Assembly: GCA_017541665.1 (NCBI GenBank)
Contig: JAFXYP010000008.1
Location: 1-64,000, forward strand
Direction of reading: 5' to 3'
DNA length: 64,000 bases
Source: Lentisphaeria bacterium
Lineage (GTDB): Bacteria; Verrucomicrobiota; Lentisphaeria; Victivallales; UBA1829
Part shown: positions 39,503-54,393 of the stretch, in pieces
Layout of the letters: the number at the start of each line of letters is the position of its first letter
Position numbering within the stretch: position 1 is the first letter of the stretch
Position numbers and translations under genes: made by a program
Notes under the pieces: model-generated
Databases searched by the model: none
Seen by the model: only the letters and a program-made list of their open reading frames with translations
Told to the model about the DNA's origin: nothing

Positions 39503-39578
39503 GGCTGCTTAGCTCAGTCGGTAGAGCGATGGAATCATAATCCACAGGTCGCTGGTTCGAACCCGGCAGCAGCCACCA
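39503..39578 (+). tRNA. tRNA with CAU anticodon (elongator Met or Ile2)
   Basis: A full cloverleaf 21 bases after tRNA-Asn: acceptor GGCTGCT pairs with AGCAGCC, the anticodon loop ATCATAA carries CAT, the T-arm is CTGGTTCGAACCCGG, and CCA is encoded. It does not have the features of initiator tRNA. Elongator Met and TilS-modified Ile2 cannot be separated by eye. Its 3' end (from 39544) is repeated at 50963-50998 and, degraded, at 48503-48535, so it appears to be a recombination target. Confidence 0.92.
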
Positions 39579-48091: not shown

Positions 48092-48144
48092 ATTCCCAAT
48101 AGGACGAGGGTTCATATACCACGGCAAGGAGTCCAGCGAAACAG
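48092..48144 (+). repeat. 53-bp repeat, copy 1
   Basis: ATTCCCAATAGGACG...CAGCGAAACAG, matched at 54092-54144 (six differences) and more loosely at 48212-48265. It contains a GGTTC-type stretch like a tRNA T-arm, but the stem does not pair well. The region 48063-49271 has no gene; it holds this repeat, a palindrome, a tRNA fragment and repeat copy B. Confidence 0.65.
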
Positions 48145-48265: not shown

Positions 48266-48502
48266 CCGGAAAACATGGAGTCATCGGCTTACGTGCAATC
48301 AACAGGACGCGGGTGCATAAATGATGGTGTTCGCACAATCATCATAATTATGTCTGTCACAAAAAAGTGTCCTGTTGATTTCTTCCCTCAAATTCGTAGC
48401 ATGAATGTTTTTCCCCATGAGACAAAAGTGGACATAGGTGTCCTTCCAAGAGCAGAGGCATCCTGCCGGTTCCGATGATTCTGCGCAGACTTATCTGTTT
48501 CC

Positions 48503-48535
48503 CAACAGGTCGCTGGTTCGTAAAACCCGGCAGGG
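48503..48535 (+). repeat. degraded 3' fragment of the CAU tRNA
   Basis: AACAGGTCGCTGGTTCG matches the tRNA variable loop and T-arm (39544 onward), then a 3-base insertion and ACCCGGCAG, then divergence. It cannot form a tRNA. Confidence 0.65.
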
Positions 48536-48732
48536 GTTCTGTTCTCGCTAAAAGAGCAAAAACAAATCACGAATATATGTTCTTATGTTCAGAGCTGCAA
48601 ATATTTATCTACGTTTCCAAAACAAAAGCTTGCGCGATATTCTTTGATTTTTGGGTGTTTGTTTTGGGTGTCCGAAATACATTGTAAGTGCTTGAGTGTG
48701 AACGAGTTAACGCTAAAAATCGCTCGCGCGGT

Positions 48733-49124
48733 CCACCATTTTTTTGTGCCTACGCACAAGCGTCCTGAACTTGACCCGTCTCTCATATTCTTCCTAAATT
48801 CCTCAAAATTCGAGCTTAACGGAAGAATAAAAAGTTCACTCTGTCTCTGAAGAGAAAACGTAATCCCGCTTTCCAGGAGCCTTCCCGGGGCGCTTTTCCG
48901 GCACCGTTCTCTATTAATCGACAGGTCGTGTCCTGTCGATTTTCTGAGCTTAATCGAAGAATTGTGCGTGAATGTCGAAATATCCCATTTATCGGAATAT
49001 CAGCACCTCCCGCCTAAGAGCGACCTGTTAGTGAATTTCAGGCCAATTTTTTTCTGTTTTTGAGCTTACGCTCCATAGTGCGCCTGTGCGGATATGCGTG
49101 TGGACGGATACCATATACCGGGAA
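48733..49124 (+). repeat. tRNA-associated repeat, copy B
   Basis: Begins with CCACCA and a T-run as after the tRNA and follows copy A (39579-39972) for about 390 bp with small substitutions and few indels. It ends at the shared GGATACCATAT block. No coding frame is convincing. Confidence 0.75.
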
Positions 49125-49271: not shown

Positions 49272-50585
49272 TTATGAAAGAGTATCCGGTTCCTGAACGG
49301 GAGACTTTTCCTGTTTTTTCTTCGGAACCGGCAGCTCAAAACGATACGGGTCTTTTACGTGCAGGTACAGATAAAGGCTCCACAGGGCAAGAGCAACTGA
49401 AAAAAGCGACATCACGGGAAAGACCGGACCATGGATTCGGTTTTCATACAAATACACGACAGCCCCCAGTTTCGGGATTCTTCCGATCCAGGATCCAAGC
49501 AAATCGTATGTAATTAAACGGGGAAGACACAAAAAGAGCGGAAACAGGAAAGTGATTCCGAAGAGGCTCCATTGTCTTGTCCGGGCAAAGTCAAAAAGAC
49601 GGATTGCGAGCAACGGATAGACCAGAATAATATCATAAATCCGGTGGTAGGTAACCAGCATGGTCAGACTGAAGGCCAAAAGAAACAGCGTGTCGGAAAT
49701 ATAATCCTTTTTGTGTTCACGCCAGAACAGCCACAGAACGACGCCGATGATCAGGGCTTTCAAACAATAAACGATGACGGGGCTTTTGAAAAGATCAAGA
49801 TGACACATGCCGACCGGATGGAAACTGTAATGGTTGATGCCTCCAGGCTGAACCGTTATTGCGACAGCTTTCACATACTCCGAATAGAGTTCCGCCAGGT
49901 TGTTGCCGAAGAAAACCGGAGAAATGGAGAGGAAAACGAAAACAGAAAAGGCCGCTATGCATAATTTCCAATGTCCCTTGAAAAAAAGCAGCGGAGCTGC
50001 GACCGGCAGCAAACTGTATTTCGCCACGGCGATGAACGAGAATAAAACCGTCCGCAGCCAGAAATGTCCCCGGTCTCCGATCCAGAATATCAAATAGAAA
50101 CATAAAGCCAGAACAATGGATATTTGTCCCCATTTCAATACATCCTTGGTACCGCAGCACATGAGGCAGAAAAAACAGCACAATGCATAAAAAAACTGTT
50201 TTCTCCCCGGTGTCCACAGATCGCGGACCTGATACCCGCATGCCTTGACGAGCGTCAAAGCAAACAGAAAGAAAACGATTCCGATATTCAGAGCAAGGTA
50301 GACAAATTGGATCATACGGCCCCAAAGATAACCGGGAATCACAAAAAACAGCATTTGCCCGGGATAGACGATCGGGACAGTCGATCCCCATTTATCCTGA
50401 TAAAAAAGGAGATCATAGTGATCGGGAAATGGGTTGTTGCCTTCAAACAGAGCGCGGGATATCGCGCTATAAGCACACAAATCAACTAAATAACGTTCGC
50501 TGAAAAAGTGCCGCACCACCAAGCCAACGGGAAACAAAAAGAGCGGCAGAGATAACAAAAACCAAATTCGATTCCTCTTATCCAT
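49272..50585 (-). CDS. polytopic GT87-type (DUF2029) membrane glycosyltransferase
   Basis: 437 aa from the ATG at 50585 (GGAG 10 bases upstream); an in-frame TTG at 50642 lies between the promoter elements. About eleven hydrophobic helices are expected. Diagnostic features are an acidic luminal loop after helix 1 (YLVDLCAYSAISRAL...NPF) and KWGQISIVLALC, which matches the GQ-x2-x-hydrophobic motif of GT87/DUF2029 mannosyltransferases using polyprenyl-phosphate sugars. The C-terminus is basic and Lys-rich. Base composition is clearly less GC-rich than the flanking genes, suggesting recent transfer. It is a single-gene unit with a repeat copy downstream and an IS remnant upstream. Confidence 0.75.
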   Translation of the reverse strand: MDKRNRIWFLLSLPLFLFPVGLVVRHFFSERYLVDLCAYSAISRALFEGNNPFPDHYDLLFYQDKWGSTVPIVYPGQMLFFVIPGYLWGRMIQFVYLALNIGIVFFLFALTLVKACGYQVRDLWTPGRKQFFYALCCFFCLMCCGTKDVLKWGQISIVLALCFYLIFWIGDRGHFWLRTVLFSFIAVAKYSLLPVAAPLLFFKGHWKLCIAAFSVFVFLSISPVFFGNNLAELYSEYVKAVAITVQPGGINHYSFHPVGMCHLDLFKSPVIVYCLKALIIGVVLWLFWREHKKDYISDTLFLLAFSLTMLVTYHRIYDIILVYPLLAIRLFDFARTRQWSLFGITFLFPLFLCLPRLITYDLLGSWIGRIPKLGAVVYLYENRIHGPVFPVMSLFSVALALWSLYLYLHVKDPYRFELPVPKKKQEKSPVQEPDTLS

Positions 50586-50620
50586 GAAAAATATGCTCCG
50601 AAGTTTGTTGAGAGACTGAC

Positions 50621-50649
50621 AACATACCGTGTTCCTTTTCAAAAATCAA
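50621..50649 (-). promoter_or_regulatory. promoter of the GT87-type gene
   Basis: Reading leftward: TTGATT (50649-50644), a 17-bp spacer and TATGTT (50626-50621). Confidence 0.6.
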
Positions 50650-50740: not shown

Positions 50741-50768
50741 ACTATAGCATGCATTGACCGGATGTCAA
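50741..50768 (-). promoter_or_regulatory. near-consensus promoter reading leftward
   Basis: TTGACA (50768-50763), a 16-bp spacer and TATAGT (50746-50741) with TG one base upstream. It sits 160 bp before the GT87-type gene and just before a strong hairpin at 50702-50680. It may drive a leader or a small RNA. Confidence 0.65.
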
Positions 50769-50810
50769 GCCTGAATCCGAAAGAATATTGATATCTATGG
50801 TGCTTTGTCT

Positions 50811-50963
50811 GGGATGCACCTCTCTTCGTAGACGGAGATACGCCGGAGCCAAGTGAAGCCGTCTGCCGTTATAGAAGTACACGTAACTTTGGACGCCTCT
50901 GCGGAGTTGAGGCAGAGAAACGTAGTCCTTAAGCTTGATGTCCTCGTATTTCAGCGCCCCCCA
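50811..50963 (-). mobile_element. IS3-type transposase remnant (end of OrfB)
   Basis: The minus strand reads WGALKYEDIKLKDYVSL, then RRGVQSYVYFYNGRRLH and a REVHP end. This is the C-terminal signature of IS3-family DDE transposases (W-x-S-L-K-Y-E-x-I-Y-L, Y-x-x-F-Y-N-x-x-R-x-H, P-x-E-V). Only about 50 residues remain; the catalytic DDE core is gone. Its left end (in + coordinates, 50963) joins exactly to the duplicated tRNA 3' end. Confidence 0.7.
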
Positions 50964-50998
50964 ACAGGTCGCTGGTTCGAACCCGGCAGCAGCCACCA
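50963..50998 (+). repeat. exact 36-bp copy of the CAU tRNA 3' end
   Basis: Identical to 39543-39578, from the variable loop through the T-arm, acceptor strand and CCA. The 5' half of a tRNA is absent, so it is not functional. It is the type of duplication left by tRNA-targeting integrases or by recombination between repeats. Confidence 0.85.
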
Positions 50999-51240
50999 TT
51001 TTTTTATGCTTACGCACAAGCGATCTGAGCTCAATTCCTCGCTCATGCTCTTCCTAAACCACCTCAAAATCCGAGCTTAACGGAAGAATAAACAGTTCTC
51101 TCTGTCTCCGTAGAGGATGAGCTGAATCCATTCACAAATCAAGTCCCCCGACCCCTTCCACGAGCCATTCTCCGTTTCGGGCACAGGTAGACGCCACTGC
51201 TTTTTTTGAACTTGATTCCAGAATTGTTTGCGATTTCGCA
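50999..51240 (+). repeat. tRNA-associated repeat, copy C (diverged)
   Basis: Starts with the same T-run and TACGCACAAGCG block as copies A and B and retains CGAGCTTAACGGAAGAATAA, then diverges. No gene is evident from 50964 to 51340. Confidence 0.65.
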
Positions 51241-51340: not shown

Positions 51341-51913
51341 TTACCTTGACCTGCCACCGGAACGGGAGCGCAAATTTTCTTTGAGGTCAAGCATACCAAG
51401 CCGGAATTGTGCATCAGGATGACCGTTTTCCTTAGCCTTTTCAAGCCATCTTTTTGCTTCGGCTAAATCTTCCACTTCATCTTCGTGAAGATAGAGTGTG
51501 CCAAGTTCAAATTGCGCATTGACGTTGCCTTGTTCCGCACTTTTGCGGAACCATTCGACAGCTTTGGGAATGTTTTTTAATGTGTCATTATGCCAATAGA
51601 GGCGACCAAGATCATATTGCGCTTCAGCAAGGCCCTGTTCAGCAGCTTTGAGCAACCATTTTTCCGCATTCTGAGGGTCACTATACCTTGTGCGACTGCC
51701 AAGGTCGTATTGCGCCCTGGCATGGCCATTCCAAGCTGCTTTTTCGTACCAATACATGGATTGACGGAAATTACTGTTGTATAGAGTCTTGGCGTATTGG
51801 TATTGTGCTTCCGGTATGCCAAGGCTGGCGCCGATCGCCAAATCCAGTCGGGAGAAGAAATCCACGACAAGCAGGAGCGCAGACAGAACAATCGCAAACA
51901 GAATCCTCCTCAA
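51341..51913 (-). pseudogene. Sel1-repeat fragment, C-terminal part of a frameshifted TIR gene
   Basis: 190 codons. A hydrophobic segment (RRILFAIVLSALLLVVDFF) is followed by four to five Sel1-like repeats of 36 residues (KAAWNGHARAQYDLGS, KAAEQGLAEAQYDLGR, KSAEQGNVNAQFELGT, KAKENGHPDAQFRLGM). It has no ATG of its own: the only start is a TTG directly after a run of nine A, and there is no ribosome-binding site. Removing one A joins it in frame to the gene upstream. Sel1 repeats are protein-interaction scaffolds. I read it as the C-terminal domain of one large protein (51341-53649). Confidence 0.7.
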
Positions 51914-53084
51914 TCTTTTTTTTTCTGACCAGAACGGAATTCTTTTTCGCTGTTTCCTTCAGTTCTTCCACCTGTTCGGGCGCTGCGCATGACAATGCGG
52001 CCATGAAAGATGGATCCTTTTGCAACAGTGATTTGCAGCGCGCCAGCTCGGAGACATTGTAAATCCTGTGTTTTCCGAAACATTTCCGGAGAAACTCATC
52101 CGACTGAGCATACTGGATCCGCAGTAAACGCTCCCGGTCGTCCTGCCCAGCACAGAGGATTGCAGTCTTGAAATCGGTATCTTCGGACAGCGGTCTGTCA
52201 GAGCGGATCAGCCCGGCCTCATCGGATACATTGTTGGCTTCCATGCACTTTCCGAGGAAATAATTGCATTGATCACGCTGATATCCAAGCAGCTGATTCA
52301 GCCGTTCCTGCTCAGCAATCCGAATTGCAGCCTGAAAACTATCATCACTGGCCAGGGGAATACCGGATTGCGAAAGGAGATGAGGGGTCTGAATGTTTCT
52401 TGCATCCATGCATCGTTTCAGGTAGAAGTCAACCGCCATGTTTCGAGCGATCGAATCCAGTTGCTGTTTCCGCTTCGGCGAAGCATATTTCAGCGCGATT
52501 TGGAAATTTGTGTCGTTCAGGATGTCGCAACAGGCGTTTGAGGTAGCGCTTTCGTCCGGGATTCGGTGCTCAAGCAGACATATCAGGAAATACAGATCGG
52601 AGTTTTCCGGGTTGGAGTCGAGCCTTTTTTCGCAGAACGAGACAGCTTTTGCCCAGTCATTCTGTGCGATCAGGATGGAAACGCGCCGTTTGATCTTTTC
52701 GATTTCGGGAACATCGTCGGATGTGTCCGAAACGGCGGATTTCTCCCCGTTTCTTTCGGATTTCATGACCTTCATGATGCCATGAAGAAGGTCCTGCATG
52801 AATCCGATTTTGTTCATATCCTGACATTGGAACATCAGGAGTTCCTCCGGGATGTCGTAGGCATCCATGTCAAAGAAGCAGGGGACGAGAAGGCGGGAGG
52901 AATTCCTCTTCTTCAGTGCGAGGAATCGACTCCATTCGTTTTTCACCCAGACTGCCTCGAAAAACTCTTTTCTCGATCCGATCACGAGCATGACTTTTGA
53001 AGAGTTCAAGGCGGCGAAGATGTATGGTTCGTATAGCTGGCCAATCTTATCTTCCAATGTAATGCGCGAGAAAAAGACCTTCAA
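51771..53084 (-). pseudogene. TIR-domain and repeat region, middle part of the frameshifted gene
   Basis: 437 codons in the open frame, of which about 51916-53246 is the real coding part. It starts inside a TIR domain: KVFFSRITLEDKIGQLYEPYIFAALNSSKVMLVIGS, with the Glu of YEPYI in the position of the catalytic Glu of TIR NADases, then VWVKNEWSRFL and a CFFDMDAYDIPEELLMFQ tail. After a Ser/Glu linker come about four imperfect repeats of 65 residues, each ending in DDSFQAAIRIA or DTDFKTAILCA. The last 44 codons are out of frame with the Sel1 domain. Such TIR proteins with a zinc ribbon occur in many gut bacteria, and some act in phage defence. Confidence 0.7.
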
Positions 53085-53649
53085 TCCCTTGTTCGTGAGC
53101 TGATAATAGATGTCCTGCGCTCGCAGGGAATCCTTCGTGCGTTCGCCGTTTTCGGCTTCTTTGTAGCAGATGAAGACGTCGTAAGGCTCCTCCTGCGAAG
53201 ATATCCTGAGGATACTCTTCTGTATCTCCGCGATGCGGTGCGCTTCTTTTTTCGTAGATGCTGCGGTCGGTCTCAGAGGCGTACTTCAGTGCGTTCCGGT
53301 AGTCGGGATCGGCGAGGATGGAGTCGAACTGCACGCGGTGGCAGGTCGGGATGCGCTCGTGATTGGCGGGGTCCTCGACGTATTCGATGCCGTATTTTGA
53401 TATGAGCTGTCCCCACCAGGCTTCGGGGTCCTCCCCGTCGAGATCGAGAATGGCCGCATAGACGTTGGCGGCCTTGTCGAAGTTGTTGGCCTGGCGGAAA
53501 TGCTCCGCGCGGTTGTAGAGTTGTTCCCGCTGCTCCGTATCGATCCTCGGAAATGTCGTCAGCATGCCGCAATAAGTACATTCCCGGGAAGTCTCGCCTT
53601 CCCTGAGTTCGTTCATGCCGCCGCACATCTTACATTGGATTTTTGCCAT
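53047..53649 (-). pseudogene. zinc ribbon and start of TIR domain, N-terminal part of the frameshifted gene
   Basis: 200 codons, of which 53247-53649 is genuine. It has the ATG and GGAG box of the whole gene. The N-terminus is a zinc ribbon (CKMCGG and CTYCG), followed by a TPR-like helix pair (RQANNFDKAANVYAAIL) and LKYASETDRSIYEK. At a run of six A (T6 at 53247-53252 on the + strand) the frame slips. With one A fewer it continues EAHRIAEIQKSILRISSQ and EEPYDVFICYKE, the start of the TIR domain. The remaining codons of this frame are out-of-frame. Confidence 0.75.
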
Positions 53650-53685
53650 CGTATTCTGTTCTCCGAATCGTTAGTTTTTTCATGT

Positions 53686-53714
53686 AGTATATACCTCGGA
53701 TCGGGAAAAAGCAA
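53686..53714 (-). promoter_or_regulatory. promoter of the TIR gene
   Basis: Reading leftward: TTGCTT (53714-53709), a 17-bp spacer and TATACT (53691-53686), about 40 bases before the ATG. The stretch 53715-54091 holds no gene I can support; one minus-strand frame (54087-53851) encodes a short hydrophobic peptide of uncertain reality. Confidence 0.65.
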
Positions 53715-54091
53715 ATTCCTTTTCAAAAAAAACCGAGAAAAGAACGTCTCCTGTGTAAGATGAGATATTTGTTTGAACCATAAACAACTCGCCTTGAATA
53801 CTATTCCGAATTGTGAGATTAAGTGTAGCGCGGAAGAAGCCATGGATGTATTATCGCAATCGTATGCTTTGCCGGCAACCGCCCCGTGCAATACAGGTCG
53901 AGGTTGAACAGGACCGATTAAAAAAAGAACAACCAGATAGAAGACACACTACAATGAAGATAGCGACAACTGTTGCTATCCCGCATTCAATCATAACCTC
54001 TATCCAGCTCGGACAAGTATCTTTCGCTTCATTCTTTGAGGTTAAATGAGGAGAACCCCTGAAAAGACGGAGGAACTCCAAAAGCAATCAG

Positions 54092-54144
54092 ATTCCCAAT
54101 AGGACGCGGGTTCGTATACCACGGCAAGGTATTCAGCGAAACAG
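54092..54144 (+). repeat. 53-bp repeat, copy 3
   Basis: Same length and order as 48092-48144 with six substitutions. It marks the right end of the patchwork region. Confidence 0.7.
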
Positions 54145-54220
54145 GGTGGTATTGTCTCCGAATCTTTTTTTTTGAGAATGCGATCCTCGATTTTTTCCTA
54201 AAAATATATAGAAAATGCAT

Positions 54221-54248
54221 TTGACTTACGGCATCGGCGGGGTATATT
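54221..54248 (+). promoter_or_regulatory. promoter and structured leader of the PQQ-propeller gene
   Basis: TTGACT at 54221-54226, a 16-bp spacer and TATATT at 54243-54248. The leader of about 140 nt contains two GC-rich stems (CCCCTCCGA with TCGGAAGGGG at 54281-54305, and GCCGAA with TTCGGC around 54324-54349). Confidence 0.7.
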
Positions 54249-54393
54249 GTTATAACTTATCGGCAATCGGCGACTGTTCTCCCCTCCGAAACGCATCGGA
54301 AGGGGGGCCCGTACCGAACCTCAGCCGAATCCACAAACCAGCTTCGGCCCGAGAAAGACCGCGGCTGTATGCGTTAGCTTGGAGATCGACATC

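What the first reader, a model, noticed from the sequence alone, without database searches (positions are those of the whole stretch)
51341..53649. Zinc-ribbon/TIR/Sel1 gene interrupted by two one-base shifts, both in A-tracts
Three frames join as one protein if one A is removed from A6 (53247-53252) and one from A9 (51916-51924). After that correction the length is 2307 bases, exactly 769 codons. Both shifts go the same way, and the Sel1 part lacks any ATG. The TIR domain has the YEPYI Glu expected of NADases. Options: true pseudogene, phase-variable A-tract switch, transcriptional slippage, or sequencing error at homopolymers.
Basis: partly seen in the sequence, partly recalled or inferred. 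Interest (0 to 1): 0.62.

Follow-up and report, generated by a model that had tools for sequence, protein, structure and literature searches.

The report
Recently broken TIR-Sel1 gene copy
This is one of four related TIR-domain genes (probable NAD-cleaving sensors) in an uncultured bacterium; two one-base shifts in runs of A recently broke this copy, an ordinary kind of gene loss rather than a proven switch.

Summary
Three frames of one gene (51341-53649, minus strand) are separated by single-base shifts at A6 (53247-53252) and A9 (51916-51924). Three paralogs in the same genome read in frame across site 1. The one paralog that reaches site 2 is in frame there too, and is collinear on both sides of it. 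None of 99 intact homologous heads in other genomes has a shift at site 1, so this is not conserved recoding. No complete TIR domain can start in its own frame.

Sequencing error is unlikely. Three pairs of contig ends overlap by exactly 141 bp, the signature of a k=141 de Bruijn short-read assembly. A frameshift screen of 187 kb of this genome found no other interrupted gene (sensitivity about 73%).

The head is otherwise undecayed: 1 of 70 strongly conserved positions differs, and there is no stop in 761 codons. Neutral divergence since loss is therefore about 2% or less.

Best reading: a very recent pseudogene of a duplicated, horizontally variable Zn-ribbon-TPR-TIR-TM-Sel1 gene beside a variable insertion site. 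Phase variation at A9 is possible, but A6 would also have to revert. Transcriptional slippage would mostly go the wrong way.

The parts
51341..53649 (-). interrupted gene: Zn-ribbon - TPR - TIR - unnamed helical repeats - TM - Sel1 repeats
53254..53649 (-). frame A piece: CxxC...CxxC zinc ribbon and TPR-like head (132 aa before the first shift)
   Evidence: 70-77% identical to three in-genome paralogs
53247..53252 (-). A6 tract, shift 1: one base more than in the three paralogs
   Evidence: no shift at this joint in 99 homologs
51927..53243 (-). frame B piece: TIR domain (P0002 residues 23-144) followed by repeats of about 60 aa with no Pfam model
   Evidence: AlphaFold model pLDDT 87, best folds SARM1/AbTir/plant TIR
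52935..52937 (-). codon of the likely catalytic Glu, WVKNE-W
   Evidence: invariant in 102 homologs; aligned to the WxxxE position of PDB TIRs
51916..51924 (-). A9 tract, shift 2, just before the TM helix
   Evidence: no other A/T run of 9 inside the scored coding segments (158 kb)
51341..51913 (-). frame C piece: TM segment and Sel1 repeats
53680..53720 (-). probable promoter region (TTGCTT...TATATACT), similar in paralogs C21 and C48
   Evidence: read from the alignment; not found by the consensus scan, so inference
50742..51017 (-). fragment resembling an integrase-core (IS3-type) transposase, downstream of the gene
   Evidence: weak rve_2/rve_3 match, below the curated cut-off
50964..51115 (+). 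repeat of the 3' end of tRNA-Met (39503-39578) with its downstream flank
   Evidence: 83% identical over 154 bp

Best explanation
The locus is a recently inactivated paralog, an incipient pseudogene, of a Zn-ribbon-TPR-TIR protein fused to a transmembrane segment and Sel1 repeats. The intact proteins are probably membrane-tethered sensors: the Sel1/TPR part recognises a trigger, the TIR domains assemble and cleave NAD+, most likely as an anti-phage or stress response (inferred from TIR knowledge, not shown). This copy gained one base in an A-run twice, presumably by replication slippage, in a host with three other copies of the family. Translation now yields only a head fragment. No standard start codon allows a complete TIR domain to be made from its own frame.
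For: Shown: collinearity of all three frames with the intact paralog C21, with one base more at site 1 than all three paralogs. None of 99 homologous heads has a frame mismatch at that joint. The first possible start in frame B is TTG 53084, after the first TIR strand (53183). The head is otherwise undecayed: 1/70 deviations at 95%-conserved columns and 0/45 at 98%, with no stop in the three pieces. Neutral simulation gives P = 0.04 at 0.02 substitutions/site and 0.01 at 0.03, so the loss is recent. Error is unlikely: three contig-end pairs overlap by exactly 141 bp, and no other gene was found interrupted in 187 kb. Accessory setting: absent from 12 congeneric genomes; the genus shares sequence only to the right of about 54190.
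Against: Both lesions are one-base gains in A-tracts with no substitution decay, which is also what a population polymorphism or phase-variable tract would look like in one consensus. No reads were available. The frameshift screen has about 73% sensitivity (58/80) and itself missed the A9 shift. Whether a site-2 gain is the ancestral change rests on a single paralog.
Confidence: 0.77

Rival explanations
1. Phase-variable gene: slipped-strand mispairing at the A9 (and A6) tract switches the protein on and off in the population; the MAG shows the off state.
For: A9 is longer than any A/T run inside the scored coding segments (158 kb). Homopolymers of 8 or more are predominantly variable in meningococcus (PMC5084427). 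The gene is not decayed.
Against: Two tracts must be right at once, and A6 is below the usual range. The other A6/T6 runs found in coding sequence (47 in all) sit in frame as far as the screen can tell. Neither tract is present at the matching place in the paralogs: GAAAAGGAA or GAGATAGAA at site 1, AGAAAATTG at site 2. 93 of 99 homologs have at most A4 at site 1.
Confidence: 0.12
2. Sequencing or assembly error at homopolymers.
For: Both lesions lie in homopolymers, go the same way, and the rest of the gene is intact.
Against: Contig ends overlap by exactly 141 bp in three independent pairs, the mark of a short-read de Bruijn assembly, and short reads handle A6 and A9 well. A/T runs of 6 (47), 7 (13) and 8 (4) in coding sequence gave no other detected frameshift (sensitivity about 73%).
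Confidence: 0.06
3. The gene is still expressed full length by transcriptional slippage or ribosomal frameshifting at the tracts.
For: RNA polymerase slips on runs of 9 A (PMC5009743). The coding sequence is still conserved.
Against: Restoring the frame needs a one-base loss in the transcript, or a +1 ribosomal shift, at each of two sites. Measured transcription errors at A/T runs are mostly insertions, deletions rarely fall in homopolymers, and no case of restored frame was seen (PMC5574713). The tracts are not conserved.
Confidence: 0.04
4. Split gene: the three frames are separately translated, co-operating proteins.
For: Each frame is long and open.
Against: No ATG/GTG/TTG start precedes the TIR in frame B; the first lies inside the domain. 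The frames overlap and are one polypeptide in the intact paralog.
Confidence: 0.01

Closest known systems
In-genome paralog C21 (L091:4559-9241; TIR, 12 Sel1 repeats, FGE-sulfatase domain, 1560 aa)
   Same: Same head, same unnamed repeats, TM, Sel1 order; 77% identity in the head and 66% over the TIR and following repeat
   Different: Intact; longer Sel1 array and an FGE-sulfatase C-terminus that the window copy lacks
Zn-ribbon-TPR-TIR proteins of gut Clostridia, Oscillospiraceae and Lachnospiraceae (77 loci)
   Same: TIR region 61-75% identical; invariant YEP and WVxNEW motifs
   Different: Other C-termini (DUF6273, RCC1, none recognised); no frameshift; often in tandem arrays
TIR NADases with solved structures (SARM1, AbTir, SPARTA TIR-APAZ, plant TIRs)
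   Same: Predicted fold (TM up to 0.7) and WxxxE motif
   Different: About 12-22% identity; NADase activity not tested for this family; this copy cannot make the domain
Homopolymer-frameshift pseudogenes, as in Buchnera and Blochmannia
   Same: Single-base indel in A-runs of an otherwise conserved gene
   Different: Here the genome is not A+T-rich and only this gene was found affected in 187 kb

Membership tests
Pseudogene (recently inactivated paralog) | Reading frame disrupted relative to intact homologs | tested here: met
   three paralogs and 99 homologs in frame at site 1; paralog C21 collinear and in frame across site 2
Pseudogene (recently inactivated paralog) | Loss of constraint (accumulated substitutions, stops); expected only in an old pseudogene | tested here: inconclusive
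   no decay seen: 1/70 conserved columns deviate, no stops; so if a pseudogene it is very recent
Pseudogene (recently inactivated paralog) | No functional product | not testable with these tools
   no transcript or protein data; no start codon for a complete TIR
Phase-variable contingency gene | Tract length varies within the population | not testable with these tools
   reads not available
Phase-variable contingency gene | Tract kept in relatives or paralogs | tested here: not met
   site 1: paralogs lack the run, 93/99 homologs have at most A4; site 2: A4 in paralog C21
Programmed frameshift or slippage gene | Conserved shift site with downstream frame fixed in relatives | tested here: not met
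   0 of 99 homologs shifted at site 1
TIR-domain NADase family | TIR fold | tested here: met
   PF13676 E=5.8e-11 over its cut-off; AF2 model and Foldseek
TIR-domain NADase family | Catalytic Glu in the WxxxE region | tested here: met
   WVKNE invariant 102/102, aligned to PDB TIRs
TIR-domain NADase family | NAD+ cleavage | not testable with these tools
   needs assay of an intact paralog
Known anti-phage TIR system (Thoeris, retron-TIR, PDC-S66) | Match to the system's own model over most of its length | tested here: not met
   only TIR-region matches: PDC-S66 2.3e-6 over 106 of 282 positions, and Retron_TIR 1e-4 with 21 of 600 bits needed

The most novel reading that the evidence does not exclude
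The A9 tract just before the membrane anchor is a length-variable switch that, together with A6, turns a membrane-bound TIR sensor on and off in an uncultured bacterium, giving phase-variable innate immunity by homopolymer slippage.
Probability: 0.08. Interest if true: 0.6.

Novelty: new member of a known kind. Interest (0 to 1): 0.2.

Why it matters
It shows a TIR sensor gene caught very soon after inactivation, beside an intact paralog in the same genome, which fits fast turnover of such genes. The family as a whole, a fixed Zn-ribbon-TPR-TIR head with exchangeable C-termini, is a better target for study than the broken copy.

Tried and rejected
Programmed recoding: rejected, no shift in 99 homologs. 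Genome-wide frameshift noise: the screen listed five candidate switches without a clear ATG boundary; 5235 has a stop and start at its boundary, three others proved on reading to be ordinary gene ends, and only the TIR gene remained. A second 'frameshifted' Sel1 hit at C40:104-106 kb is two separate intact genes. Third lesion at the 3' end: no similarity to the C21 C-terminus downstream, undecided. Diversity-generating retroelement for the FGE domain of the paralog: no reverse transcriptase in this 77%-complete genome. Viral copies: none by tblastn. Orthologs in the order: 7 of 137 genomes have the family, none close enough to give the ancestral tract length.

Full report
Check of the observation. 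The minus-strand gene 53649-51341 is open in three overlapping frames: 53670-53047, 53285-51771 and 51958-51341. The frames change at A6 (53247-53252) and A9 (51916-51924), as reported. The pieces carry a CxxC/CxxC zinc ribbon with a TPR-like stretch, a TIR domain (PF13676, E=5.8e-11) and Sel1 repeats (PF08238, E=6.6e-23). The zinc ribbon is read from the sequence; its Pfam match is not significant.

Is it one gene? The genome that holds the window (a MAG of 2.6 Mb, 87 contigs, 77% complete) has three paralogs, on contigs C21, C48 and C78. C21 is intact over 1560 aa; C48 and C78 are cut by contig ends. All three paralogs cross the site-1 joint in frame with 9 nt between the aligned blocks, where the window has 10. 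The end of the second piece and the start of the third align to C21 up to residue 682 and from 691. The two shifts therefore interrupt a single polypeptide of known order: zinc ribbon, TPR, TIR, helical repeats without a Pfam model, TM, Sel1.

Is it conserved? Of 77 loci fetched from other species, 99 head copies read through the joint. None has a frame mismatch, and 93 have at most four A in a row there. C21 has AGAAAATTG at site 2. The tracts are private to this copy, which rules out conserved recoding at site 1 and makes an evolved contingency tract unlikely.

Is it an error? The ends of contigs C48 and C78 are identical for exactly 141 bases, and two more contig-end pairs overlap by exactly 141 (C14/C43, C78/C52). 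That is the mark of a de Bruijn assembly with k=141, hence of short reads (that k value is the top of MEGAHIT's default list, from my own knowledge). A codon-usage Viterbi screen of 187 kb of this genome found the TIR gene as the only frame switch that is not a gene boundary. Simulated insertions at A/T runs of 5 or more were detected in 58 of 80 cases. The screen caught the A6 shift, but not the A9 shift, whose downstream part scores poorly. The coding segments hold 47 A6/T6, 13 of length 7 and 4 of length 8.

How old is it? At 70 columns conserved in at least 95% of homologs, the window copy deviates once (homolog median 1); at 45 columns conserved in at least 98%, never. There are no stops in 761 codons. 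Neutral simulation gives a probability of 0.04 for such a result at 0.02 substitutions per site and 0.01 at 0.03. If the gene is dead, it died within about 2% neutral divergence.

Could it still work? No ATG, GTG or TTG precedes the TIR in its own frame; the first is TTG 53084, about 100 bases into the domain. Rescue in the transcript needs a one-base loss at both tracts. Transcription errors at A/T runs are mostly insertions, deletions are rarely tied to homopolymers, and frame restoration was not observed in Buchnera (PMC5574713). Runs of nine A do slip (PMC5009743), and tracts of eight or more are predominantly variable in meningococcus (PMC5084427), so A9 is mutable; A6 is the obstacle for a switch.

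What the intact protein is. The TIR piece models well (pLDDT 87) and its best solved matches are SARM1, AbTir, SPARTA and plant TIRs. Both YEPYI and WVKNEW are nearly or wholly invariant, and their Glu residues are invariant, in 102 homologs. Relatives keep the head and change the C-terminus: Sel1 with FGE-sulfatase, DUF6273, RCC1 repeats, or nothing recognised. 20 of 72 loci hold two to four heads. A sensor with a fixed NADase head and exchangeable recognition part is the natural reading, and it is inference.

Setting. Twelve congeneric genomes lack the gene, and 7 of 137 genomes of the order, this one included, have any relative. In eight congeners, sequence shared with the window begins at about 54190-54390, at the PQQ gene, and nothing of 30000-54186 is shared; what lies there differs from genome to genome. 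A repeat of the tRNA-Met 3' end lies at 50964-51115 and a transposase-like fragment at 50742-51017. The gene therefore sits at a variable site.

Verdict. A real, very recent frameshift inactivation of one of four paralogs; ordinary in kind. Reads over the two tracts would settle the remaining chance of a switch.

Noticed in passing
L036, L021, L064, L078, L082, L089 and others: The Zn-ribbon-TPR-TIR head is fixed while C-termini change (DUF6273, RCC1, Sel1+FGE, none), and heads often lie in tandem arrays of 2-4, mainly in gut Clostridia: a modular TIR sensor family that the paper searches run here did not turn up.
   Followed up: partly
39503-39578, 48475-48560, 48733-49124, 50964-51115: The 3' end of tRNA-Met and its downstream flank are repeated to the right, partly diverged, as at a stacked integration site.
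   Followed up: partly
L092:13311-13451 and L093:16020-16160: Two paralogs on contigs C48 and C78 become identical at the contig ends (141 bp, probably the assembler's k), so their C-termini share a near-identical repeat; the continuation is not in the bin.
   Followed up: partly
52160-52640 and L091:5900-6600: A repeat of about 60 aa (KCMEANxVxDxxxL...DFxxAL..A.PERxxxL..IQ..Q) between TIR and TM matches no Pfam model.
   Followed up: no
G000:C25:12695-13383 (L121, L122): A decayed paralog of the neighbouring GT87 gene (49272-50642) with an internal TAA and a piece on the opposite strand.
   Followed up: no
48092-48144 and 54092-54144: A 53-bp repeat (91%) flanking the region at a distance of 6 kb; the right copy lies just left of the synteny breakpoint at about 54190.
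   Followed up: no
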